From Trujillonella endophytica (GTDB taxonomy: Bacteria > Actinomycetota > Actinomycetes > Mycobacteriales > Geodermatophilaceae): a stretch of 64,000 bases of DNA. Under the pieces are notes generated by a model. It made no database searches, had not been told where the DNA came from, and was given only the letters and a program-made list of their open reading frames with translations. This document shows positions 48,150-62,136 of the stretch, in pieces (position 1 is the stretch's first letter; each line of letters begins with the position of its first letter). The translations under genes were made by a program, and so were the position numbers. The stretch spans positions 1-64,000 of the forward strand of contig NZ_FOEE01000004.1 of assembly GCF_900110555.1 (NCBI RefSeq). The letters are read 5' to 3'.

Positions 48150-49003
48150 TGGAGCACCCGCACGTCCTGCGGCAGCCGCCCGATCCGCAGCATAAGCCGG
48201 TAGGCCAGCAGGCACACGCCGCCGCCGCCGAGCAGCAGCGCCGTCCCGGCCGCGGAGTCGTACGCGGCCAGCGTGGTCGACTGGGTCGCCAGCAGCAGGA
48301 GCACCACCCACGGCGCGGCCACCGCCAGCCGCGCGGCCTGCACCACCCAGCCCTGCCGGGTCTCCAGCTCCGCCCGCGCGCGGGCGTCCTCGCGCAGGAA
48401 GGTGGCCAGCGTCCGCAGCACCCGGCCGAGGTCGCTGCCGCCCACCTCCCGGGCCACCCGCAGCGTCTCCACGATGCGGTCGCCGACCGGATCGGCGAGG
48501 TCGTCCTTGAGCCGGTCCAGGCACTCCCCGAACCGGCCGCTGCTGCGGTACTCGGCGCCGAACCGGGCGAACGGCGGGCGCACCACCTCCGGACCGCGGA
48601 CGGCGAGCGCGGCCAGCGCCTCCGGCAGCGACAGCCCGGCCCGGACGGCGGAGGCGAGGTTGTCGACCACCTCCGGCCAGACCTCCCGCAGGTCGGCCCG
48701 GCGGCGCAGGGCGAGCCGGCGCACCTGCACCGCCGGCAGCGCGAACCCGAAGACGGCGAAGGCGAGGCTGACCGTGACCGTGCCGGTGGTCAGCAGGACG
48801 ACGACGAGCGTCAGCAGGCCGAGCCCCAGCTGCAGGGCCAGCAGCTGGGCGGAGTTGATGCCGGACAGCCCCGCCGCGGCCAGCTGCTCCTGCCGCCGCC
48901 CGGTGCGGCGCGGGCCCGGCGCCCGCCGCGGTGCCCGCGGGCCGCTGCGCCAGACGAGCAGCAGCCCGACGCCGAGCAGCAGCCCGGGCAGAGCGCCCGT
49001 CAC
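48146..49003 (-). CDS. tadB: TadB-like type II secretion system F-domain protein
   Basis: The 285-aa product has the TadB plan: N-terminal TM segments, then VWPEVVDNLASAVRAGLSLPEAL and EVGGSDLGRVLRTLATFLRED of the T2SSF domain, and a hydrophobic C-terminus. The GTG start at 49003 overlaps the tadA stop by GTGA, making a coupled tadA-tadB-tadC set. It should form the inner-membrane platform with TadC. Confidence 0.9.
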   Translation of the reverse strand: MTGALPGLLLGVGLLLVWRSGPRAPRRAPGPRRTGRRQEQLAAAGLSGINSAQLLALQLGLGLLTLVVVLLTTGTVTVSLAFAVFGFALPAVQVRRLALRRRADLREVWPEVVDNLASAVRAGLSLPEALAALAVRGPEVVRPPFARFGAEYRSSGRFGECLDRLKDDLADPVGDRIVETLRVAREVGGSDLGRVLRTLATFLREDARARAELETRQGWVVQAARLAVAAPWVVLLLLATQSTTLAAYDSAAGTALLLGGGGVCLLAYRLMLRIGRLPQDVRVLQ

Positions 49004-49773
49004 CGGTCCCACCGGCCGGAGTCGTCGAGCAGCGCGGGGAGGTCGATGCCCAGCGCGGCGAAGCGCTCGGCGTGCGGCGGGTGGCCGCCGGCCCGCACCA
49101 GCCGCCCGTCCCGGGAGGTGAAGACGTCGGCCAGCTCGACGACGCCGTCCTCCACCCGGCCCGGCACAGCCACGATTTCGCGCACCCGCCGCTGGCCCGA
49201 CGCGTCCGTGCCCACGTGCACGACCAGGTCGACGCTCGTGGCCACCGTGGGGACGACGAACGCGTGCCCGATGTTCTCGCCGGCCAGCAGCGGCAGCGTG
49301 CACATCTTCGCGATGGCCTCGCGCGCCCCGTTGGCGTGCAGGGTGCACATGCCGGGAAGACCGCTGTTCAGCGCGATCAGCAGGTCCAGGCACTCCTCCT
49401 GCCGGACCTCGCCGACGACGATCCGCGAAGGACGCATCCGCAGCGCCTCCTTGACCAGCCGGCGCAGCGGGATCTCGCCGGCGCCCTCGAGGTTGGGCTG
49501 GCGGGTCTGCATCGAGACGACGTCGGGCAGCGGGACGCGGAGCTCGAACACCTCTTCCGCCGTGATCACCCGCTCCCGGGCGGGGATCGCCGCGCAGAGG
49601 CAGTTCAGCAGCGTCGTCTTGCCGGCCTGGGTGCCGCCGGAGACCAGCACGTTCAGCCCCGCCGCGACCGCCGCCTCCAGGAAGCGGGCCGCGTGCGCGG
49701 TCAGCGTGCCGAGCGCGACCAGCTCGTCCAGGGAGTGCGCCTGCAGCACGAACTTGCGGATGTTCACGGCCAT
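49000..49773 (-). CDS. tadA: TadA/CpaF pilus ATPase, 5'-truncated by the mobile element
   Basis: What remains (257 aa from the first ATG) is the catalytic C-terminal part of the Tad secretion ATPase: MAVNIRKFVLQAHSLDELV, Walker A GGTQAGKTTLL (about 46-56), the Asp-box, Walker B RPSRIVVGEVRQEE and the His-box TLHANGAREAI. Family members are about 400-480 residues, so the N-terminal domain is missing. Homology continues in frame upstream of the ATG (ERVIPDITRRH at 49774-49806) and stops near 49825, where the integrase stop codon lies in the same frame. The gene therefore looks disrupted by insertion. Its product may be non-functional for lack of the N-domain. Confidence 0.88.
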   Translation of the reverse strand: MAVNIRKFVLQAHSLDELVALGTLTAHAARFLEAAVAAGLNVLVSGGTQAGKTTLLNCLCAAIPARERVITAEEVFELRVPLPDVVSMQTRQPNLEGAGEIPLRRLVKEALRMRPSRIVVGEVRQEECLDLLIALNSGLPGMCTLHANGAREAIAKMCTLPLLAGENIGHAFVVPTVATSVDLVVHVGTDASGQRRVREIVAVPGRVEDGVVELADVFTSRDGRLVRAGGHPPHAERFAALGIDLPALLDDSGRWDR

Positions 49774-49830
49774 GTGCCGCCGGGTGATGTCGGGGATGAC
49801 ACGCTCCAGGCGCGTTTGTCCAGCTCAAGG
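49774..49830. other. Element-chromosome junction (putative attL) within tadA
   Basis: Reading the minus strand, tadA-type coding sequence (TRLERVIPDITRRH) begins right after the integrase stop TGA (49827-49825) in the same frame. The crossover should lie between about 49800 and 49830. The other junction, carrying the missing 5' part of tadA, is outside the window, so the core sequence cannot be fixed. Confidence 0.65.
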
Positions 49831-50934
49831 GCGGTGTGCAAGCCCCTCAGTCCGCACGGAGTCCGCAGGACGGGCAAACGCAACCTCGATCGCGGCCCGC
49901 GTCCGCGTCTCGGCGTCCGGCCACAGGTGGCTATAGGTGCGCAGCGTCTCGGTTTCATCGGCGTGGCCGAGGACGTGGGCCACCGTCTTGACCGACTCGC
50001 CATAGCGGATGAGCGCCGACGCGGTGAAATGCCGCAGGTCGTGGAAGCGTGCGGCGGGCAGGCCGGCGCGCCGGCGCAGTGGTTGCCACACCGCGCCGTT
50101 GAACGTGTTGGGCCAGACCGGCCCACCGGTCCGCGACCGGAACACCAGGTCGTTGGGGCCGGCGGGGAACGCCGCGAGGTGCTCGGCCAACGCCGTTGAA
50201 ACCACGTCGGCCAACGGAACCGTGCGGATGCTCCGGCGGGTCTTGGGTGGGCCTAGCTTCGGCGGCGCACCGGGAACGAGCGTCAGCTGCTCTACGACGT
50301 CGAGTTCCCGCTCGAGGAACCGCACCCGGCCGACCTTCAAACCAAGTGCCTCACCGAGCCGCAGCCCGCAGCCGGCTCCCAGCACGACGAGGGCCCGGTA
50401 GCGATCCGGTGCCGCGGCCACGAGGGCCTCGACTTGCTCGACGGTCAGCGGGACGACCCGCTCCCGATGCGGCCGCGGCGGCAGCGTCTCGCGGCACGGT
50501 GACTTAACGAGGAAACCGTCCTCCACCGCGTCGGTGAATACGCTCGCCAGCAGCGCCATTACCTGACGGCTGGTCGTCGGCGACAGCTTGTCCTCAATGC
50601 CCCGGCGAAAGCCGAGCACCTGCGTACGGGTGACCGCCGAGAGGCCCCTGTCCCCGAACGCCGGCAGCAGGTGGTTGCGCAGGTAGGAGTCGTACGTGCG
50701 GCGAGACGTGTCGCGAAGCGGTTGCGCAGGCAGCCAGGTGCTGACGTAGACCCGGAAAGTGCAGCGGCCTCGCATCGGATCGACCCAGTCGCCACGCACC
50801 AGCGCTGCGGTCTGCTCGTCGAGCCAGCGTTGGGCGTCCACCTTCCGTTTGAAGTGACGGGCGTGCTCCTTGCCGGACGCGTCGCGGAAGCGCGGCCTGT
50901 ACGTGCCGTCGGGTCGACGGGCGATGCTGGCCAT
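49825..50934 (-). CDS. int: Tyrosine site-specific integrase
   Basis: The 369-aa product has an N-terminal AP2-like arm-binding part (SIARRPDGTYRPRFRDASG), a SAM-like core-binding domain (about 60-160) and a catalytic domain with the full set: Arg in GCGLRLGEAL, Lys in PPKTRRSIR, HxxR in HDLRH, the second His in LGHAD and Tyr in TYSHLWP. It should integrate and excise the element. The ATG at 50934 was chosen because GAGG lies about 8 bases upstream and the protein begins as phage integrases do; the frame is open further upstream but not integrase-like. Its stop touches the tadA remnant. Confidence 0.94.
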   Translation of the reverse strand: MASIARRPDGTYRPRFRDASGKEHARHFKRKVDAQRWLDEQTAALVRGDWVDPMRGRCTFRVYVSTWLPAQPLRDTSRRTYDSYLRNHLLPAFGDRGLSAVTRTQVLGFRRGIEDKLSPTTSRQVMALLASVFTDAVEDGFLVKSPCRETLPPRPHRERVVPLTVEQVEALVAAAPDRYRALVVLGAGCGLRLGEALGLKVGRVRFLERELDVVEQLTLVPGAPPKLGPPKTRRSIRTVPLADVVSTALAEHLAAFPAGPNDLVFRSRTGGPVWPNTFNGAVWQPLRRRAGLPAARFHDLRHFTASALIRYGESVKTVAHVLGHADETETLRTYSHLWPDAETRTRAAIEVAFARPADSVRTEGLAHRP

Positions 50935-51538
50935 TCGGCTCACCTCGAGAGGACGGAGGAGGCCGGAAGTGGCGCTGCCTCGGTCCTGCGGGAGTAGCAC
51001 CTCTAGACCGCTTATGCGCCCGACCGTTGTGATCCGTGGACAACGAAGGGCCTGTGGACAACGGGCGCCCCAGGTGTTCCTCCAGTACTCCCGCCTAGGT
51101 CCTGGAGAAGTACTGGCGAACTGGTGGCCGGTGCCCGCCTTCGCTGATCGGAACAGAAGAACCCGGTTACACGCTGTGGTTGAGCGCGGATCCCGCGCTG
51201 TCTGCCCGACCGTCGGCCGCGTCGAGCGATCCGCACCCGATTCCAGCCAACTTGGCTCTACATCTCCTAATGACCTGGCCAACTGCCGCTCGCCGGTCCT
51301 GGGACCGGCCGAACGCGACGCAACCGGTCCTTGCCGCCGTCAGCTCCCTGCGGCAACGGCGACGGCTCAAGGCCGGACGAGGGTGGAGAAGGCGGCTTCT
51401 AATCAGTCGCGCGGGCCCATCCTCTGGCGCGCCGGCGCCGAGCCTCACGGGCCAGGCCACGCCAGGCCAGACAGCACCGCTTCGCGCGAGCGACCACGCG
51501 GAACCCCCCCATCAAGGCTCCCACGCCCCGACGCTAAG
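50935..51538. other. Intergenic region upstream of the integrase
   Basis: About 600 bases with no convincing gene. It contains two boxes that read TTGTCCACA/G on the minus strand (51053-51061 and 51035-51043, 18 bp apart) and an inverted repeat CCAGTACT...AGTACTGG (51082-51089 and 51109-51116). These could be arm-type integrase sites, a promoter or DnaA-box-like sequences. A small excisionase was looked for and not found. Confidence 0.4.
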
Positions 51539-54340
51539 TCAGGATCCGCCCGCCTGAAGGCTGACAGTCGTCTTCTCATACTGCTCAAAGAGGAGTCGCT
51601 GACGGTCTCGCTCAGCCTCGAGGTGCCCATTCGCCCCGAAGGCCGCACACACCAAAGCGTCGAGCTTCTGATGGGCCTCAGTCAGCTCAAGCCTCATCCT
51701 CAACGGGTCGTACTGCATGCCAAGGGGTGTGGTCGGGTTCTCCTCCCGAACCCTAAGAACCTCTTGCCCAGCCAAGACGATTTCGGCACGAAGATCGGAT
51801 TCCATGGTGGGAACCGGCAACGTATTCCAAACGATCGTGTTCGTGAAGCTTGGGTCAGACTTCATGCGCCCCCCGACCGTCTTCTGCCAGGTCATGAACA
51901 TGGACGACGAGATCATCGCGAAGAGGAAGCCATCTGGATCTGGTGACGTGAACAGCTTGATCGAGGCGATCACATCTGATGACAGTCGCGCCACCGTTGC
52001 GTGAGTTCGGCCCTCCGCGAATGTCTGCGGGATGCCCAGATAGTCTGTGCTCGGTTGACGGCGCTCCTCGAAAAGGTGCGGAGTAGCAACCCCCCTCCTC
52101 GTCATCAACTTCGGGCTAGCGGCTCGGCGTTGCCGAATCTCGTTGAGACGTCCCCGAATCAGTGCGCTTCTTTCCAACTCGGCGAGGTCGGCACCGACGA
52201 ACCATAGGCACCATCGTTGCAGCCCATTAATCAACTCGTCGCCGCCTCGGTAGCGCCGAAGGTAACGAACTGCGATGGAATCGTCGGCAACTTCGTCATA
52301 CTGATCTGGCTCGACCGTTAAGAATCCCCAGTCAACCGCCTTCGATCCAGCCTGGACCTCCGGCAACTGTGGAGCACTGGGGCGCATCCTCTTTCGCACG
52401 AGGACATTCGGACCGTCAACAAGGTACGCATTTATGCGGTCCACCCGCCGACCTAATGGATCAACCAGTGCGCCACCGATATAGTCAAAGAGTAGCGCCG
52501 CAGTCCCGCGCTCTCGATCAAATCCTACGATTACACAATGGACAGCTGCGCCGCCGGAGGATTCCGACGTCCATGGAAAAGTGCGATGAGCGAACCGCAC
52601 ACGCCAACCGTTCGCAAGGATTGCTCCCCACAGCGTTGGTACGGCCTGACCTTGCGCGATCGAGTTGGTGGACACGAACGCCCACCTCGACCTCGCTTCG
52701 CCGTAGTAGTCGATCGCCTTCGCGTACCAGCCGGATACATAGTCGAGAAATCCGTCGTACTGCACACCCCAAACAAGCCGGAGATCGTCCGTCTGTCCAG
52801 CGCTTCGTTCCTTCGGCCCCAAGAATGGAGGATTTCCGGCCATAATCACATCTGGCCCCGCAGGGACAACCTCTGACCAATCCATGCGCAGTGCATTTCC
52901 AACAACGATTTTCGCGGATCGCTGAATCGGCAGCCGCTCGGGCGCAACGCCAAAACGCTCCCTCATCTTCAGGTCGCACTGCCGGTCCATGAGGAACATC
53001 GCTGTCTCCGCGATGCGGGCAGGCCACTCGTCGAGCTCGATGCCAGAGAAGTGATCAAGCGTCACCTTAAGCAGATGGGTCCAATCCGCGCCAAGAGCGG
53101 TCGCACCCTCGCCCTGCTGGAGATTAGCAAGGCCGTCCATGACGCGAAGTTCCAGCTCCCGTAGTTCCCGGTAGGCGACGATGATGAAGTTGCCGCACCC
53201 GCAAGCCGGATCCAGGTACCGAATCTCGCCAAGCCTTTTCCACAGCGCATTGAGGGCGTTGATCCGCTTCTGGGGGGTCTCTCGTGTAAGCGCAGCATCG
53301 GCCTCTGCGCGAAGTTCGTCTAGAAAGAGAGGGTTGAGCGTCTTGAGGATGTTCACCTCCGACGTGTAGTGCTCCCCCAGCTCTCGCCGGGTCTGTGCAT
53401 CACGCACGGACTGAAACATCGAGCCAAAGATGGCCGGGCTGATCGTTGACCAGTCGACGGCGGATGCAGCCAGCACCGCCTCACGGAAGTCGCTGCCCAG
53501 ACTCGGGAGCCTAATCGGCTCCTCGAAGATCCCACCGTTCACGTAAGGGAGCGCTAGAAGTTCCGCAGCGAGTCCATTGCGGTCGACTGGCGCGGTGTCC
53601 AGAACCCGAAAGAGCTCGTTGAGGCGTTCGCCGATGTCTGAACCGTCACGCGCTGTGTGATCCTTAACGAAATCTTGGAACAGGCCAGGCAATGGCTCGC
53701 CGTCTGGCGCCTTCCACATCTCCGTATCGTCACCAAACAGTAGGAAGAGGACACGCGCAAGGGTCACGGAGATCTCGTGGTCACGCTTCTTGGTGTCGAA
53801 ATCAGCTGCATAGCTCCGTTCGACCGCAGAATACATCTGCGCCATCAACCGCGACGCGCGCTTGCTCTCGCTCTTGGTCTCTACGTCGAACGCAGCTCGT
53901 ACCCGTGACAGGACTTCATTTACATCGATGACGACATCGCTCGGCAGTCGGATCGCATTGAGCTTTGCCACGAATTGCGGATCGGCTTGCCCGACTAGGT
54001 GGACGTGCCTAGCAGGACGTGAGATGACGCCGTTTCCCTTACTCGTACGCGACGGCCAGCGCCAGACCTGTTTGCCAGTGCCATGGAAGATCACGAGTCG
54101 GTTAGTGGACACCTTAGCAATTGCCTGGTCGATCTTTGCCTCGCCGACCGCCCCCGGAAGAGCAGCAACTTCCCAAACGCGAACCCCCTTGTAAGAGGAC
54201 ACGTTGGTCGCGCTGACGTGATACCCGTCCTCAAGCTCAACCTGGATCGGCGCGTGGTCAGGGCTGTGCCAAAACAAGTCGAGTCGGAAGAGGTCGCCGA
54301 ACCTTCCGCCATCCGCCTTCGTGAGCAGTGGCTCGGTCAT
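51539..54340 (-). CDS. MmeI/Eco57I-like adenine-specific DNA methyltransferase
   Basis: The 933-aa product should methylate adenine (N6) in a DNA target. An N-terminal domain (about 1-140) without a visible PD-(D/E)XK nuclease site is followed by a helical spacer (about 150-345, ERSYAADFDTKKRDHEIS). Next is the methyltransferase domain with motif I DPACGCGNF (377-385) and motif IV NPPF (503-506), and then a probable target-recognition and C-terminal helical region. The domain order is that of MmeI-type enzymes. The ATG at 54340 overlaps the stop of the upstream helicase (ATGA). GC is visibly lower than in the chromosome genes. The cutting activity probably comes from the partner helicase protein. 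Confidence 0.9.
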   Translation of the reverse strand: MTEPLLTKADGGRFGDLFRLDLFWHSPDHAPIQVELEDGYHVSATNVSSYKGVRVWEVAALPGAVGEAKIDQAIAKVSTNRLVIFHGTGKQVWRWPSRTSKGNGVISRPARHVHLVGQADPQFVAKLNAIRLPSDVVIDVNEVLSRVRAAFDVETKSESKRASRLMAQMYSAVERSYAADFDTKKRDHEISVTLARVLFLLFGDDTEMWKAPDGEPLPGLFQDFVKDHTARDGSDIGERLNELFRVLDTAPVDRNGLAAELLALPYVNGGIFEEPIRLPSLGSDFREAVLAASAVDWSTISPAIFGSMFQSVRDAQTRRELGEHYTSEVNILKTLNPLFLDELRAEADAALTRETPQKRINALNALWKRLGEIRYLDPACGCGNFIIVAYRELRELELRVMDGLANLQQGEGATALGADWTHLLKVTLDHFSGIELDEWPARIAETAMFLMDRQCDLKMRERFGVAPERLPIQRSAKIVVGNALRMDWSEVVPAGPDVIMAGNPPFLGPKERSAGQTDDLRLVWGVQYDGFLDYVSGWYAKAIDYYGEARSRWAFVSTNSIAQGQAVPTLWGAILANGWRVRFAHRTFPWTSESSGGAAVHCVIVGFDRERGTAALLFDYIGGALVDPLGRRVDRINAYLVDGPNVLVRKRMRPSAPQLPEVQAGSKAVDWGFLTVEPDQYDEVADDSIAVRYLRRYRGGDELINGLQRWCLWFVGADLAELERSALIRGRLNEIRQRRAASPKLMTRRGVATPHLFEERRQPSTDYLGIPQTFAEGRTHATVARLSSDVIASIKLFTSPDPDGFLFAMISSSMFMTWQKTVGGRMKSDPSFTNTIVWNTLPVPTMESDLRAEIVLAGQEVLRVREENPTTPLGMQYDPLRMRLELTEAHQKLDALVCAAFGANGHLEAERDRQRLLFEQYEKTTVSLQAGGS

Positions 54341-57300
54341 CGCGCGGTCACACCGATCGAGCAAACAATTTTAATCTCTTCTTTCTCGGCCGACCCGATT
54401 ACGAGGCGTTCCTCCCCGTGAACTTGCTTCACAAGATCCGCGAGGTCCTGGTCGGAGTACTTGCTTCGTCGGGCTTGACGAAGACGAACGTTGGCGTACT
54501 CGGTCAGCGGCCTGTCCATCATGGCGCTTACTGCGTCGCTTGCGTCGGCGCCATAGATCGTTCCCCCGAGACGTTCCACAGCCCACTTGCGCACCCCGCG
54601 AAGCGCGCCGGCGGCGACCATCTCGTTGCCAAGCTTCCCCTTCACCAGGAGCGCCTCCCGGTCGAAGTGATCCCGCCGCAGCGGCGCCGTTGGGGTCGTT
54701 TCGTCGGCGCGGAAGACGTGGAGGGCTTCAAGTGGCGTCAGGAGGCGCTCGACAGAGCTGCTGCCATCTGCACTGTCGAACGACGCGGCGAATGCGTCGA
54801 TGCCGGTTGACGTTCGGGCGTAGGTAGTCACGCCCGTCTTGACCTCGTTGCCGTATGGGCCTCGGCTGCTATGCATAAGGTCCTGCATTTTCATGACCTT
54901 GGCTGCGAGATGCGGATTTTGGTCCTTAATGTTCGACCATACGAGCCAAGCTTCGCTCACTGCGTCAGCTTCACCCTCGTCCTGGACAAGCTCGTCCTCT
55001 GACGGGATAGCGCCCTTATATAGATCGTCGAGCAGATTTACTTCCTTCTCGTCACCGAAGAACCGCTCGTCGGAGCCGAAGGCAGCAGCGTTGTCACCGA
55101 GCCTCTGCCTGATCCGCTGCCGAAGGAGGATGGCCTGCTCAACCTTCTCGTGCGTGATCATGTATATGAAAACTCTGTCGGACTTCTGGCCCACCCGGTC
55201 GACGCGGCCCGCGCGTTGGATGATGCGGATAATCGCCCAGGGCAGGTCATAGTTGACCACGATGTGAGAGTCCTGAAGGTTCTGACCTTCCGAGAGGACG
55301 TCGGTCGCCACTAAGACGTCGATGGGATCCATTACCGGCATCTCTTCGGTCTCTTCGCCGGGTAGCCGGTTGCTTTCCGGAGAGAATCGGCGGGCGATAG
55401 CCGCCGGGTCATCCGAGTCCCCGTAAGCCAAGCCGACATGCTGTACGCCGGCATCCTTCAAAGCCTTCGCAACGTACTCAGCGGTGTCGGCGTACTCAGT
55501 AAAAACGAGCACCTTCTCGCCGGGGTGGTCGTCTCGGAGCATATCTACGAGGGCATTCGCCTTGGTGTCCTTGACCGGATCCCAAGCTCCGAAGCGGTCG
55601 AGAAGTTGAGTGATGATTGCGTTGTCGCGCAGCAGATCCTTGCGCAAGCTAGATTTGAAGATGCCAGTCTGCAACCACTTTGTGGAGGCGGGTAGTCGAC
55701 GATGTAGTTCGCGATAGCGCGACGCCAGACTGCCACCCATTTCCTCGTGCTCTTCGAGGTCCGAGTCCGAGACTGTGAACTGATGGTCGCTGAAACTTCC
55801 GAGCGGAACGGCCAGAGCGTTGTCGATGGCGTAAACAAAGAGCTCGTTTCGGGCTCGTTGGCGTTGAAGGCTCAGTATGAAGGAGTGTCCCGACGAGGAG
55901 AGACGCTTGAACAAACCGATGCGCACAAAGCCGCTAACGTTGCCTCGCCCGGACCGGATATCGGCGATGATTTTGGCGTCCTCGATGGTGTGCGGAGCCT
56001 TCGGGTTGTCATACTCGGCAAGCCGATAGCGCGGGAGAACGAGGTCCCTGATCGCGTCGAGCGTGTCGTCGCTCTCCATAAACTGCGCTGGGTCGTCGTC
56101 GGCGAAGTCGAGGCTTAGCGGCTTGGGGACACGAATGGGAAAATGAAACCTTTGACCGTTCGCGAACTCCAGGTACTCGCGTACTTCAACCCCGCCGCCA
56201 GGCAGGGAGACCATCTCCTTCTTGGCTGTCCTTTTGATGAACGAGCGCGTGCGGCGAACGAGGTGATCGCTCATTAGGCGCTTCCAGTCCTCGGCCTCTT
56301 CCGAGCGACGGAAGGCAGCGAGCGTGGTGATCTTTCCGTCGACCTTATCTACCAGGGCCTTATCCTTCGTCATGGCTGCAGTCGGCTGGATGCCGAGATC
56401 CTCGTCGTCGTCAATGTAGAGTCCGACTTGATTCGCAACGTCGGCGAACGCGAGGTTATACGGAGTCGCCGTCAGAAGCAGGACCTTCGAACCGTTGCGG
56501 CGAATGTAGTCCTGGATCGCCTCATAGGCCCTCGTTGAACTATTGCGCAGATTGTGCGACTCGTCGCAAATGACCAAATGGAACCGCTTCAGCTCGGGCA
56601 ATCTTCTGTCCGCCACTGAATACGGGATGACTCTGGAACCGCGGAGGTCATACCTTTCCAGGTGCTCGTTCCACATACGCTCGAGGTTCTTCGGACACAA
56701 CACGAGGGTCGTGTAGTCTTCCGCCGCCTCCAGCATCAGTGCAGTCGCGATTGCCGTAAGGGTCTTGCCCAGTCCAACGACGTCGCCGAGCATCGTCCCG
56801 CCTCGTCGGACGATGCGGCGCGCGAGCGTGCGGACGGCAGTCTCCTGATAGTCGAGAAGCAGGTTCTCGATTGAAGGTGGCAGAACGTAGCCGAGACCTT
56901 CTCGCGCATCCTCGGACATTGCGTGGCAAACCTTAAGGTAGACCTCGTACGGCGTCGGCTGCGTTTCGGACGCCCACGACTCCGCTATAAGGTCGATGAT
57001 TTCTGACGAGATCCGAAGTGAAAAGGGATCGTCCCACCGATCAGTGAACCAGGCGGCAAGTTTACCCGCTGCGTCTTTCTCGACGACGTCGATGTTCAAC
57101 TCAAGATTCTTGAATAGGCCGGCATTCGTCAAGTTGGATGAGCCAACATAGGCGCGGCGTTCTGCAAAGGCATTGCCCGGTGCGTGAAAGATGTAGGTCT
57201 TACCATGCAGCGGCGCGGTCGTGAACACCTTCACCTCGACAGCCCCAGACTCCAGTTGCCCCTTTAGTTGCTGGAGGGTTGTCTGTTCTCCTTCGGACGG

Positions 57301-57657
57301 CAGGCCGCGCATCAACTGCGTCCGGAGGTGCTTGACAAGTTGATCCTTGGCGGCGAGGGCCTTGCCCATGTCGTTGAGGTCCGAGCCATAGGGAGGCGGC
57401 TGAACTGCATCCTGCAGCGCAGCGAGCATGAGCGCCGAGTCCGCTGGCATCACCATCCCGATGAGCACCCGCGCCACGGCGGGTTCGGTTGATTGCCTGT
57501 CGGCGACCTTGTTGTTCACTATGTCGGAGAAGCTGGCCCAGCCTCGGAGATCGAAGTACCCAGTGGCAATATCACAAGAGTCGAAGTTGGCGAGGGCTGT
57601 CTTGAGTGCAGGGCCGATGGATGACTCAGTCGTTAGGTTGTCGAAGATGTCCGGCAT
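54337..57657 (-). CDS. PLD-nuclease/SNF2-helicase fusion protein
   Basis: The 1106-aa product joins an N-terminal phospholipase-D-type nuclease domain (about 1-215; HGK at 151-153 and GSSN at 172-175) to an SF2/SNF2 ATPase. The ATPase has motif I VGLGKT (294-299), motif II DESH (365-368), motif III TATPY (396-400) and the C-lobe QRAGRVDRVGQ (814-824). The C-terminal 250 residues are unassigned. It should translocate on DNA and cut through the PLD domain, which has a single HxK half-site and so probably works as a dimer. GGAGGA stands 5 bases before the ATG. It is followed by the methyltransferase with a 4-base overlap, a restriction-modification-like arrangement. Confidence 0.9.
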   Translation of the reverse strand: MPDIFDNLTTESSIGPALKTALANFDSCDIATGYFDLRGWASFSDIVNNKVADRQSTEPAVARVLIGMVMPADSALMLAALQDAVQPPPYGSDLNDMGKALAAKDQLVKHLRTQLMRGLPSEGEQTTLQQLKGQLESGAVEVKVFTTAPLHGKTYIFHAPGNAFAERRAYVGSSNLTNAGLFKNLELNIDVVEKDAAGKLAAWFTDRWDDPFSLRISSEIIDLIAESWASETQPTPYEVYLKVCHAMSEDAREGLGYVLPPSIENLLLDYQETAVRTLARRIVRRGGTMLGDVVGLGKTLTAIATALMLEAAEDYTTLVLCPKNLERMWNEHLERYDLRGSRVIPYSVADRRLPELKRFHLVICDESHNLRNSSTRAYEAIQDYIRRNGSKVLLLTATPYNLAFADVANQVGLYIDDDEDLGIQPTAAMTKDKALVDKVDGKITTLAAFRRSEEAEDWKRLMSDHLVRRTRSFIKRTAKKEMVSLPGGGVEVREYLEFANGQRFHFPIRVPKPLSLDFADDDPAQFMESDDTLDAIRDLVLPRYRLAEYDNPKAPHTIEDAKIIADIRSGRGNVSGFVRIGLFKRLSSSGHSFILSLQRQRARNELFVYAIDNALAVPLGSFSDHQFTVSDSDLEEHEEMGGSLASRYRELHRRLPASTKWLQTGIFKSSLRKDLLRDNAIITQLLDRFGAWDPVKDTKANALVDMLRDDHPGEKVLVFTEYADTAEYVAKALKDAGVQHVGLAYGDSDDPAAIARRFSPESNRLPGEETEEMPVMDPIDVLVATDVLSEGQNLQDSHIVVNYDLPWAIIRIIQRAGRVDRVGQKSDRVFIYMITHEKVEQAILLRQRIRQRLGDNAAAFGSDERFFGDEKEVNLLDDLYKGAIPSEDELVQDEGEADAVSEAWLVWSNIKDQNPHLAAKVMKMQDLMHSSRGPYGNEVKTGVTTYARTSTGIDAFAASFDSADGSSSVERLLTPLEALHVFRADETTPTAPLRRDHFDREALLVKGKLGNEMVAAGALRGVRKWAVERLGGTIYGADASDAVSAMMDRPLTEYANVRLRQARRSKYSDQDLADLVKQVHGEERLVIGSAEKEEIKIVCSIGVTAR

Positions 57658-60613: not shown

Positions 60614-60993
60614 TTATCAACGCCGTCCAATAATGACCAACACATGACCCCCAGAGATGCCGAAGGGCCCCGCGAAGCGGGGCCCGAGCTACCTCCATTG
60701 GTAGCATGCGTGCCGTTCTTAAGTCCATTCAGCGACACTTCTGACAATCGCTGACTGTTGTTGCGGCCTCAAATCGTCTTGGCAGGACTCCGTTCAGAGG
60801 TCGGAGCGGCGGGGTGCGGTCCGTGTGCCCTCGGGTCGTTCAGGTGGATGCCGGCCCTGCCCGTCGCCGCGCGGTCGCCGGATGGAGTTAAGGACACGCG
60901 TCGAGGACACCGGCGATGACCCTCCGCTCCGGGGCGGGCGAGGCCTGCGACGGCCCGAAGGCACGGAGTGCGAGGTGTCTCTGAAGGCGGCCT
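60614..60993. other. Divergent intergenic region with two hairpins
   Basis: About 380 bases between the relaxase (minus) and the DUF3644 gene (plus). It contains GGGCCCCGC-GAA-GCGGGGCCC (60665-60685) and GCTACC...GGTAGC (60689-60704). Such hairpins upstream of a relaxase could form part of oriT. No gene was found. Confidence 0.45.
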
Positions 60994-61001
60994 ATGGGAC
61001 A
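60975..61001 (+). repeat. GTGTC...GGGACA repeat, copy A
   Basis: GTGTCTCTGAAGG then TATGGGACA, a degenerate copy of the motif found also at 62431, 62785 and 63213. The predicted start ATG of the DUF3644 gene lies inside it. Confidence 0.55.
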
Positions 61002-62136
61002 GGATGCCTCGGTGAAGCGAGACGCCCAGGTTCTGCACAGCAAGGCGATCGCCTCGATGCGGGTAGCCACAGCGGCGTTCAACTCACCGGATGACGTCGG
61101 CCGGGTGACCCAGGTGCTCCTGTCCCTTCAGCACTCGTTCGAGATGCTGCTCAAGGCCGCGCTGGTGCAGAACCGCGTCCGGGTCTTCGACAAGGAGTCG
61201 GGCCGGTCCATCGGGATGGACAAGTGCATCAACCAGGCGCAGAACGACACCGTCATTAAGCTGACCGACGACGAGGCGGGCACTCTCCGCACCATCGATG
61301 CGATGCGAGACGACGAGCAGCACTGGTTCGCCGAGGTGTCGGAGCAGATCCTCTACCTGCACGCTCGTGCCGGGATCACCCTCTTCGACGAGCTGCTGGA
61401 CCGGGTGTTCGGGCAGCGGCTGGCCACCTACCTGCCCCTTCGGGTCCTGCCCCTGTCGACAGACCCTCCGCGCGACCTCCACCTCCTCCTCGACGAGGAG
61501 TACAGCGCCATCGCCGACCTCCTGAAGCCGAAGCGCCGGATGACCGAGCCCGCGAAGGCAAGGATCCGCACCCTGCTTGCAATGGAGGCTCACGAGGAGC
61601 CGGACACCCGCGTCTCCGACAAGGACGTCGCCCGAGTCGTCAAGGGCATCCGGGCGGGCAAGACCCGAGCCGAGGTCTTCCCCCGCCTGGAGAACTTGGC
61701 CACGGACGTGACCGGCGAGGGGCCGAACGTCACGGTGCACTTCAACAAGAAGGGCGAGGGCGCTGCCGTGCACTTCGTCCCCGAGGACGCCGACGTCGAG
61801 TCGGCCGCGATCCGCGAGGTCGATCTCAACGCTCGCTTCTCCCGCACGAAGGCCGAGCTCGCCGACGCGCTCGGGGTGAAGCAGCACATCGCGACCGCGC
61901 TCAGGGACCACCTCGCCGTCGACCAGGATCCCCGTTGCTACCGGGACATCACGTACAACAACTCCGTTCTCCGCAAGTACTCGGATCGGGCCTTCGCCCC
62001 CATGCGCGAGTTCATCAAGGCCGGTAAGGCCGAGGCGGTGAGGGCGGCGCACAGTCCGAACAAGGGCATGCGCCACGAGCGCTGCTCGATCGAGGGCTGC
62101 AAGGCCGGAGCGGACCCCACCCCGCCGCTGGGGTGA
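60994..62136 (+). CDS. DUF3644 protein with HEPN-like RX4H motif
   Basis: The 380-aa product matches DUF3644 in its N-terminal helical part (VTQVLLSLQHSFEMLLKAAL). A second helical part holds RDDEQHWF (about 110-117), which has the RX4H spacing of catalytic HEPN ribonucleases. A helical middle (PKRRMTEPAKARIRTLLAME), a beta-rich section (NVTVHFNKKGEGAAVHFVP) and a winged-helix-like end (TKAELADALGVKQHIATAL) follow, closing with HERCSIEGC. If the motif is active it would cut RNA, as HEPN toxins and Abi-type defence proteins do. A start at GTG 61012 is possible. It lies alone, divergent from the relaxase. Confidence 0.78.
   Translation: MGQDASVKRDAQVLHSKAIASMRVATAAFNSPDDVGRVTQVLLSLQHSFEMLLKAALVQNRVRVFDKESGRSIGMDKCINQAQNDTVIKLTDDEAGTLRTIDAMRDDEQHWFAEVSEQILYLHARAGITLFDELLDRVFGQRLATYLPLRVLPLSTDPPRDLHLLLDEEYSAIADLLKPKRRMTEPAKARIRTLLAMEAHEEPDTRVSDKDVARVVKGIRAGKTRAEVFPRLENLATDVTGEGPNVTVHFNKKGEGAAVHFVPEDADVESAAIREVDLNARFSRTKAELADALGVKQHIATALRDHLAVDQDPRCYRDITYNNSVLRKYSDRAFAPMREFIKAGKAEAVRAAHSPNKGMRHERCSIEGCKAGADPTPPLG

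What the first reader, a model, noticed from the sequence alone, without database searches (positions are those of the whole stretch)
51539..57657. Two-gene restriction-like module: PLD-SNF2 helicase coupled to an MmeI-like methyltransferase
A 1106-aa protein joins a PLD-type nuclease domain (HGK 151-153, GSSN 172-175) to an SF2 motor. It is coupled by an ATGA overlap to a 933-aa adenine methyltransferase with MmeI/Eco57I-type domain order but no visible nuclease motif in its own N-domain. The obvious split is that the methyltransferase marks self and holds the target recognition, while the helicase protein translocates and cuts. None of the hallmark partners of DISARM (drmB), BREX (pglZ, brxC) or type I systems (separate HsdS) are beside it. 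It may be a compact two-component defence system that does not fit a named class.
Basis: partly seen in the sequence, partly recalled or inferred. Interest (0 to 1): 0.8.

Follow-up and report, generated by a model that had tools for sequence, protein, structure and literature searches.

The report
Two-gene ATP-driven restriction-modification system
Two overlapping genes on a mobile element look like a compact DNA-restriction system in which a DNA-marking enzyme has lost its own cutting domain and is paired, across many bacterial phyla, with a separate ATP-driven DNA motor that carries the cutter.

Summary
In detail: an 1106-aa PLD-SNF2 protein overlaps (ATGA) a 933-aa MmeI-type adenine methyltransferase. 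Of 72 helicase loci with room on the contig, from many phyla, 70 have the methyltransferase beside the helicase; no third gene is conserved at most loci. Stand-alone relatives of the methyltransferase carry an intact MmeI-type nuclease motif and have no helicase. The paired enzymes carry a different N-domain without that motif, shared by partners of two different methyltransferase types. Target-recognition domains diverge independently of the helicase: in one pair of loci the helicases are 97% identical but the recognition domains only 51%, with different base-contact residues. So recognition lies in the methyltransferase, the PLD-SNF2 protein is a specificity-free motor-nuclease, and the N-domain is probably its dock. 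Membership fails for DISARM, BREX, DUF499/Hma, CglI and MmeI. PADLOC labels the methyltransferase alone 'Type IIG'. The Synechocystis pSYSX relative is probably M.Ssp6803IV (GA-m6A-GGC). Verdict: a new, widespread variant of ATP-dependent restriction-modification; mechanism inferred.

The parts
54337..57657 (-). PLD-SNF2 protein (1106 aa): putative restriction subunit, motor plus nuclease
   Evidence: ORF and Pfam domains; full-length homologues at 36-83% identity in many phyla; conserved active-site residues
56953..57657 (-). N-terminal PLD nuclease domain (residues 1-235), single HxK...GSSN...E half-site
   Evidence: PLDc_2 and RE_NgoFVII hits; H151, K153, GSSN172-175, E186 invariant in 30 homologues
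57199..57207 (-). HGK codons 151-153 of the PLD site
57133..57144 (-). GSSN codons 172-175 of the PLD site
55078..56952 (-). SWI2/SNF2-type SF2 motor (residues about 236-860)
   Evidence: SNF2-rel_dom and Helicase_C; model 259-898 aligns to SNF2 motors, best Z 20.5, 391 residues, 3.4 A
54337..55077 (-). C-terminal alpha/beta region of the helicase protein (residues 861-1106), role unknown, possible docking or coupling part
   Evidence: AF2 secondary structure only
54337..54340 (-). ATGA stop/start overlap coupling translation
   Evidence: 4-base overlaps also in L021-L026, L030, L031, L045, L047, L068, L096
51539..54340 (-). MmeI-family gamma-class adenine methyltransferase (933 aa): modification and specificity subunit
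   Evidence: model residues 154-928 match MmeI 5hr4, Z 42.5, 742 residues, 38% identity
53885..54340 (-). N-domain (residues 1-152) without nuclease motif; marker of helicase-coupled methyltransferases, putative dock
   Evidence: no D...ExK; HMM finds it in 54 large-type partner methyltransferases but in 0 of 9 stand-alone MmeI-type enzymes; identity co-varies with the helicase, r=0.95
53441..53884 (-). MmeI_hel helical spacer (residues about 153-300)
52481..53440 (-). gamma-class N6-adenine methyltransferase catalytic domain (residues about 301-620)
   Evidence: motif I LDPACGCGNF and motif IV GNPPF
51806..52417 (-). MmeI_TRD target-recognition domain (residues 642-845); contact residues K744/E758/E759, A664/K667, Q772/I794, K795/S831, K827/D829
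   Evidence: read with the code in PMC4833311
57809..60613 (-). context: MobF/TrwC relaxase of the carrier element (not part of the restriction module)
49825..51282 (-). context: tyrosine integrase of the carrier element, inserted in tadA (not part of the restriction module)

Best explanation
A two-gene, ATP-dependent restriction-modification system. The MmeI-family methyltransferase reads a short asymmetric site and methylates one adenine. Its TRD is the only sequence-specific part of the system; the contact residues predict roughly 5'-CCNNAG-3' with the A methylated. Its original N-terminal nuclease has been replaced by a motif-less N-domain that probably docks the PLD-SNF2 protein. At unmethylated sites the docked protein is switched on, hydrolyses ATP, moves along or remodels double-stranded DNA, and cuts through a PLD site that needs two protomers. 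Because only one strand of each site can be methylated, cutting probably needs two unmethylated sites or two converging complexes, so newly replicated self DNA is spared. Shown here by comparison: pairing, loss of the nuclease motif, the shared N-domain, free variation of the TRD, conserved catalytic residues. Inferred: docking, translocation, the two-site rule, cleavage, and phage or plasmid defence.
For: Pair conserved in 70 of 72 loci with room, the only two gene families conserved in most loci. On plasmids all 11 MmeI-type records carrying this N-domain have the helicase; none of the 29 listed records lacking it has a full-length one. Nine stand-alone proteins read carry ID-x(9-10)-E[AQM]K, the MmeI D70...E80-K82 site (PMC4833311); 14 of 15 paired proteins have no match to the search pattern, and the single match lies elsewhere, at residue 20. 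The N-domain HMM detects 54 partners of the larger Eco57I type (E 1e-47 to 0.0015) and no stand-alone MmeI-type enzyme, although those score 845-1017 bits in the body. Identity correlation with the helicase: N-domain 0.95, spacer 0.92, catalytic 0.90, TRD 0.48, C-domain 0.42. L005/L031 helicases 97% identical, TRDs 51%, contact residues different. Catalytic residues of both proteins conserved. The Synechocystis pSYSX relative scores 2662 bits with PADLOC model PDLC03628; pSYSX encodes M.Ssp6803IV, which methylates GA-m6A-GGC (PMC6604393, PMC7296061). A PLD nuclease fused to an SF2 motor cuts and translocates in SauUSI (PMC7913695).
Against: No activity was measured. Docking of the N-domain on the helicase is inferred from co-variation and co-occurrence, which shared ancestry also produces. 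The helicase model is moderate (pLDDT 73.5) and the PLD dimer was not modelled. Two loci (L061, L094) have the helicase without the methyltransferase nearby. More distant PLD-helicases (L007, L008) lie near other methyltransferases.
Confidence: 0.77

Rival explanations
1. A DISARM- or ARMADA-like fragment: the pair is the helicase/methyltransferase half of a larger system (drmD+drmMI, or BrxHII-like+PglX-like) and needs further subunits encoded elsewhere.
For: Partial profile hits of the helicase include DrmD, BrxHI/HII and HmaA. ARMADA also uses a BrxHII-like helicase plus PglX-like methyltransferase pair (PMC12458937).
Against: No third gene is found near the pair in more than 17 of 80 loci. 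No PglZ or DUF499 anywhere in the 99.6% complete genome, and the only MZB (YprA/DUF1998-type) match is on another contig. DrmD score far below cut-off.
Confidence: 0.12
2. A methylation-dependent (type IV-like) or abortive system: the PLD-SNF2 protein senses modified or replicating DNA, and the methyltransferase marks targets or regulates rather than protects self.
For: SauUSI has the same PLD+SF2 order and cuts methylated DNA (PMC7913695); an abortive helicase/nuclease is known (Sather et al. 2023, cited in PMC12839542).
Against: No Pfam domain for modified-base recognition in the helicase protein. The tight pairing and shared N-domain point to a common complex. A helicase that cuts at m6A sites made by its own partner would attack the host.
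Confidence: 0.07
3. A stand-alone Type IIG/IIL enzyme with an unrelated helicase neighbour carried along on mobile DNA.
For: PADLOC labels the methyltransferase REase_MTase_IIG at E 2e-254; the body matches MmeI with Z 42.5.
Against: The PADLOC match starts at residue 154; the nuclease motif is absent; the helicase accompanies the N-domain in 11 of 11 plasmid records and the methyltransferase accompanies the helicase in 70 of 72 genomic loci.
Confidence: 0.04

Closest known systems
MmeI and the Type IIL/IIG family
   Same: Methyltransferase body, spacer, TRD and C-domain: Pfam MmeI_hel/Mtase/TRD/C, 5hr4 Z 42.5; contact residues largely follow the MmeI code
   Different: MmeI cuts with its own N-terminal PD-(D/E)XK domain and needs no helicase; here that domain is replaced and a PLD-SNF2 partner is present
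Synechocystis M.Ssp6803IV locus on pSYSX
   Same: Same helicase (36% identity, full length) and same N-domain on the methyltransferase; the modification GA-m6A-GGC is published (PMC7296061)
   Different: Methyltransferase body is the larger Eco57I type and two small genes lie between; assignment of the locus to M.Ssp6803IV is by elimination; I found no report linking the helicase to restriction
SauUSI (Type IV, PLD-SF2)
   Same: N-terminal PLD nuclease fused to an SF2 motor, dimer through the nuclease, ATP-driven translocation (PMC7913695)
   Different: SauUSI has its own TRD and cuts methylated DNA; here recognition appears to sit in a methyltransferase partner
CglI / NgoAVII
   Same: PLD nuclease plus SF2 ATPase in an ATP-dependent restriction enzyme; CglI acts at an asymmetric site (PMC4267653, PMC5737866)
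   Different: There nuclease and ATPase are separate proteins, the R protein carries a B3-type TRD, and the methyltransferase is separate
Type-2 BREX-related (DUF499/Hma) systems
   Same: HKD + Swi2/Snf2 helicase with an N6-methyltransferase (PMC12839542)
   Different: They are defined by the DUF499 ATPase, absent from this genome
DISARM class 1 and ARMADA
   Same: SNF2-type helicase plus adenine methyltransferase pair
   Different: They add YprA-type helicases and further genes (PMC12458937); none conserved here
PADLOC profile C3a139 'HKD+Snf2'
   Same: Best PADLOC hit of this helicase group (E 1.9e-34 for the window, 2.9e-53 for Synechocystis)
   Different: A distant, partly covering match; which system PADLOC attaches it to could not be looked up here

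Membership tests
MmeI / Type IIL-IIG restriction enzymes | MmeI-type methyltransferase, TRD and C-terminal domains | tested here: met
   Pfam hits over cut-off; 5hr4 alignment
MmeI / Type IIL-IIG restriction enzymes | N-terminal PD-(D/E)XK nuclease in the same chain | tested here: not met
   D...ExK absent in the window protein but present in 9 stand-alone relatives
DISARM | DrmD-family helicase | tested here: not met
   NF038317 124 bits against cut-off 610; NF038318 84 against 950
DISARM | drmB (DUF1998/MZB) in the locus | tested here: not met
   Only MZB match in the genome is on another contig
BREX | PglZ in the system | tested here: not met
   No PF08665 match in the whole genome, controls positive
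DUF499-centred BREX-related / Hma | DUF499 AAA+ ATPase | tested here: not met
   No PF04465 match in the whole genome, control positive
SauUSI-type Type IV enzymes | C-terminal SRA-like TRD in the PLD-SF2 protein | tested here: inconclusive
   No Pfam match after the motor; C-terminal region 861-1106 not folded or searched alone
CglI / NgoAVII | Separate nuclease (PLD+B3) and ATPase proteins | tested here: not met
   PLD and motor are one 1106-aa chain; no B3 domain match
Type I R-M | Separate HsdS specificity subunit | tested here: not met
   TRD is inside the methyltransferase; no further gene conserved at most loci
Type III R-M | beta-class Mod methyltransferase and Res with PD-(D/E)XK nuclease | tested here: not met
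   gamma-class MmeI_Mtase and PLD nuclease instead
ATP-dependent restriction-modification (general kind) | ATP-dependent cleavage of unmodified DNA | not testable with these tools
   needs biochemistry
Anti-phage defence system | Reduces phage plating | not testable with these tools
   needs a plating assay

The most novel reading that the evidence does not exclude
A distinct, widespread class of ATP-dependent restriction-modification: a cutter-less gamma-methyltransferase (MmeI- or Eco57I-like) uses a dedicated docking N-domain to recruit a specificity-free PLD-SNF2 translocase-nuclease, methylates one strand only, and cuts when two complexes at unmethylated sites meet. Database tools currently call its methyltransferase a single-gene Type IIG enzyme and miss its restriction half.
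Probability: 0.55. Interest if true: 0.72.

Novelty: new variant of a known kind. Interest (0 to 1): 0.62.

Why it matters
It would show a clean evolutionary trade: a self-contained cut-and-mark enzyme gives up its nuclease domain and borrows an ATP-driven cutter, probably through a docking domain. That makes the N-domain a testable recruitment handle, would explain some 'Type IIG' methyltransferases that do not cut, and gives a minimal two-protein setting for the question of how one-strand-methylating systems avoid cutting newly replicated DNA. Because the same motor-nuclease sits behind many recognition domains, its specificity should be changeable by swapping only the methyltransferase TRD.

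Tried and rejected
Named systems by profile: PADLOC, Pfam and NCBIfam gave only partial or below-cut-off system hits for the helicase, so no named system was assigned. DUF499, PglZ and MZB searches of the whole genome gave no BREX-related, BREX or DISARM partner for the pair. Phage records hold no full-length helicase, so a phage origin was not pursued; five full-length relatives sit on IMG/VR contigs. The structure comparison of the whole models said nothing about residues 1-153 of the methyltransferase or about the PLD part and C-terminus of the helicase; absence there is not evidence. The N-domain alone found nothing significant in PDB sequences. Its helix/strand order (H, three E, H, E, E) would suit a degenerate PD-(D/E)XK fold, but I could not test that. 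A long exact att repeat was not found; only an imperfect match at the two tadA halves. Literature searches found no description of this two-gene pair; the library is open-access only. The primary paper on the Synechocystis methyltransferases (Hagemann 2018) was not held. Positions 3 and 4 of the predicted site could not be read from the published code.
Full report
Observation. The two ORFs, their ATGA overlap, the HGK and GSSN motifs and the MmeI-like domain order are all present at the stated coordinates. The helicase protein has PLDc_2/RE_NgoFVII (about residues 128-208), SNF2 and Helicase_C domains; the methyltransferase has MmeI_hel, MmeI_Mtase, MmeI_TRD and MmeI_C, and nothing matches its first 150 residues. 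PLD residues (H151, K153, GSSN172-175, E186) and the core SF2 residues are invariant in 30 homologues; the methyltransferase motifs LDPACGCGNF and GNPPF are intact.

Pairing. A scan of one genome per species with a six-member helicase alignment gave at least 558 relatives; the best 80 (35-83% identity) come from Actinomycetota, Cyanobacteria, Chloroflexi, Bacteroidota, Verrucomicrobia, Acidobacteria, Poribacteria and others. A methyltransferase is adjacent or close by in 70; of the 10 without, 8 are cut by the contig end, leaving 70 of 72. It is usually downstream, often with a 4-base overlap, and upstream in six. All-against-all clustering of neighbours shows only two families conserved in most loci, the helicase (79 loci) and the methyltransferase (67); the next, a DprA/Smf-like gene, is in 17. 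The 60 searched relatives of the host species lack a full-length copy, and full-length copies occur on 20 plasmid records, so the module is mobile.

Natural experiment on the cutter. MmeI-type methyltransferases on plasmids split in two. Records matching the window protein from its first residues (11) all carry the helicase. Records matching only from about residue 60-160 (29 listed) include none with a full-length helicase, and ten inspected neighbourhoods lacked it. Nine of those proteins, read from their N-ends, carry ID-x(9-10)-E[AQM]K, matching MmeI's D70...E80-K82 nuclease site, whose mutation abolishes cleavage (PMC4833311). In the 15 paired proteins that site is absent: 14 have no match to the pattern and one has a match elsewhere, at residue 20. 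The records are not phylogenetically independent, so I give counts and no p-value.

The N-domain follows the helicase. An HMM of residues 1-152 from 15 paired MmeI-type enzymes finds the N-domain in 54 partner methyltransferases of the larger Eco57I-type, in distant phyla (Synechocystis E 2e-19), whose bodies barely match, and in none of the nine stand-alone MmeI-type enzymes, whose bodies score 845-1017 bits. Across pairs of loci its identity follows helicase identity (r 0.95), as do spacer (0.92) and catalytic domain (0.90), whereas the TRD (0.48) and C-domain (0.42) do so much less. I read this as a docking platform; shared ancestry alone could produce the correlation, but does not explain the sharing across two methyltransferase types and the absence from stand-alone ones.

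Specificity sits in the methyltransferase. Helicases of L005 and L031 are 97% identical but their TRDs are 51% identical with different base-contact residues (AGQ/YK/KD/KS/KD against KDE/KQ/RD/AR/KD). The paired enzymes mostly use combinations known from the MmeI code (E-R or K-D at 806/808; R-D, K-D or E-N at 751/773; PMC4833311). For the window, K at the 723 position with E at 738 suggests C at position 1, K at 645 suggests C at 2, K-D at 806/808 specifies G at 6, and the A at 5 is the methylated base: roughly CCNNAG. Positions 3 and 4 are unread.

Structure. The methyltransferase model (pLDDT 83.8) aligns over residues 154-928 with MmeI 5hr4 (Z 42.5, 742 residues, 5.0 A). The helicase model (pLDDT 73.5) aligns at 259-898 with SNF2 motors (best Z 20.5, 391 residues, 3.4 A). 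Neither result tests the N-domain, the PLD part or the helicase C-terminus.

Mechanism. SauUSI shows that a PLD nuclease fused to an SF2 motor forms a nuclease-held dimer, translocates with ATP and shreds DNA (PMC7913695); CglI shows ATP-dependent PLD cutting at an asymmetric site through one-dimensional communication (PMC5737866). Transfer of this to the window is inference. The Synechocystis pSYSX relative matches a PADLOC Type IIG model end to end at 2662 bits; pSYSX encodes M.Ssp6803IV and V (PMC6604393), V is the type I system, and IV makes GA-m6A-GGC (PMC7296061), so the relative is probably IV. A single methylated adenine in an asymmetric site leaves one daughter site unmodified after replication, which argues for a two-site or convergence rule as in Type III and Type ISP enzymes (established knowledge of those families; not tested here).

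Known or new. Membership fails for DISARM, BREX, DUF499/Hma, CglI, Type I, Type III and MmeI on at least one defining feature and is unsettled for SauUSI. The kind, ATP-dependent restriction-modification, is known; this arrangement was not found described in the searchable open-access literature. Carrier: a roughly 18-kb element with tyrosine integrase and MobF relaxase, inserted in tadA, whose halves lie at 49000-49773 and at contig position 68036-68596.

Noticed in passing
window 49000-49773 and L182:4036-4596 (contig C17 68036-68596): tadA is split into two halves by an integrative element of about 18 kb that carries the integrase, the restriction pair and the relaxase; the junctions share only an imperfect repeat around ATCCC..GACAT.
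   Followed up: partly
window 60994-62136 (+): A 380-aa DUF3644 protein on the same element matches PADLOC candidate defence family PDC-S19 at E 1.2e-151.
   Followed up: no
window 62443, 62795, 63225: Three near-identical GGCCCACTATGGGAC sites in 0.8 kb (two exact, one with one mismatch), and a related GGCGGCCTATGGGAC at 60986 and, on the other strand, at L182:2555; possible regulator or replication sites of the element.
   Followed up: partly
L067:18422-19261 and 16 other helicase loci: A DprA/Smf-like (DNA_processg_A) gene recurs near the pair in 17 of 80 loci.
   Followed up: no
L071:15836-16846: An MTaX1+HNH protein lies just after the pair; its family recurs in three loci, a possible accessory nuclease.
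   Followed up: no
L007, L008: More distant PLD-SNF2 helicases (about 28% identity) on Deinococcus and Nostoc plasmids lie near other N6-methyltransferases with extra genes between, suggesting sister systems.
   Followed up: no
L037, L038, L039, L048: Partner methyltransferases read as two overlapping or adjacent ORFs, which may be real splits or sequencing frameshifts.
   Followed up: no
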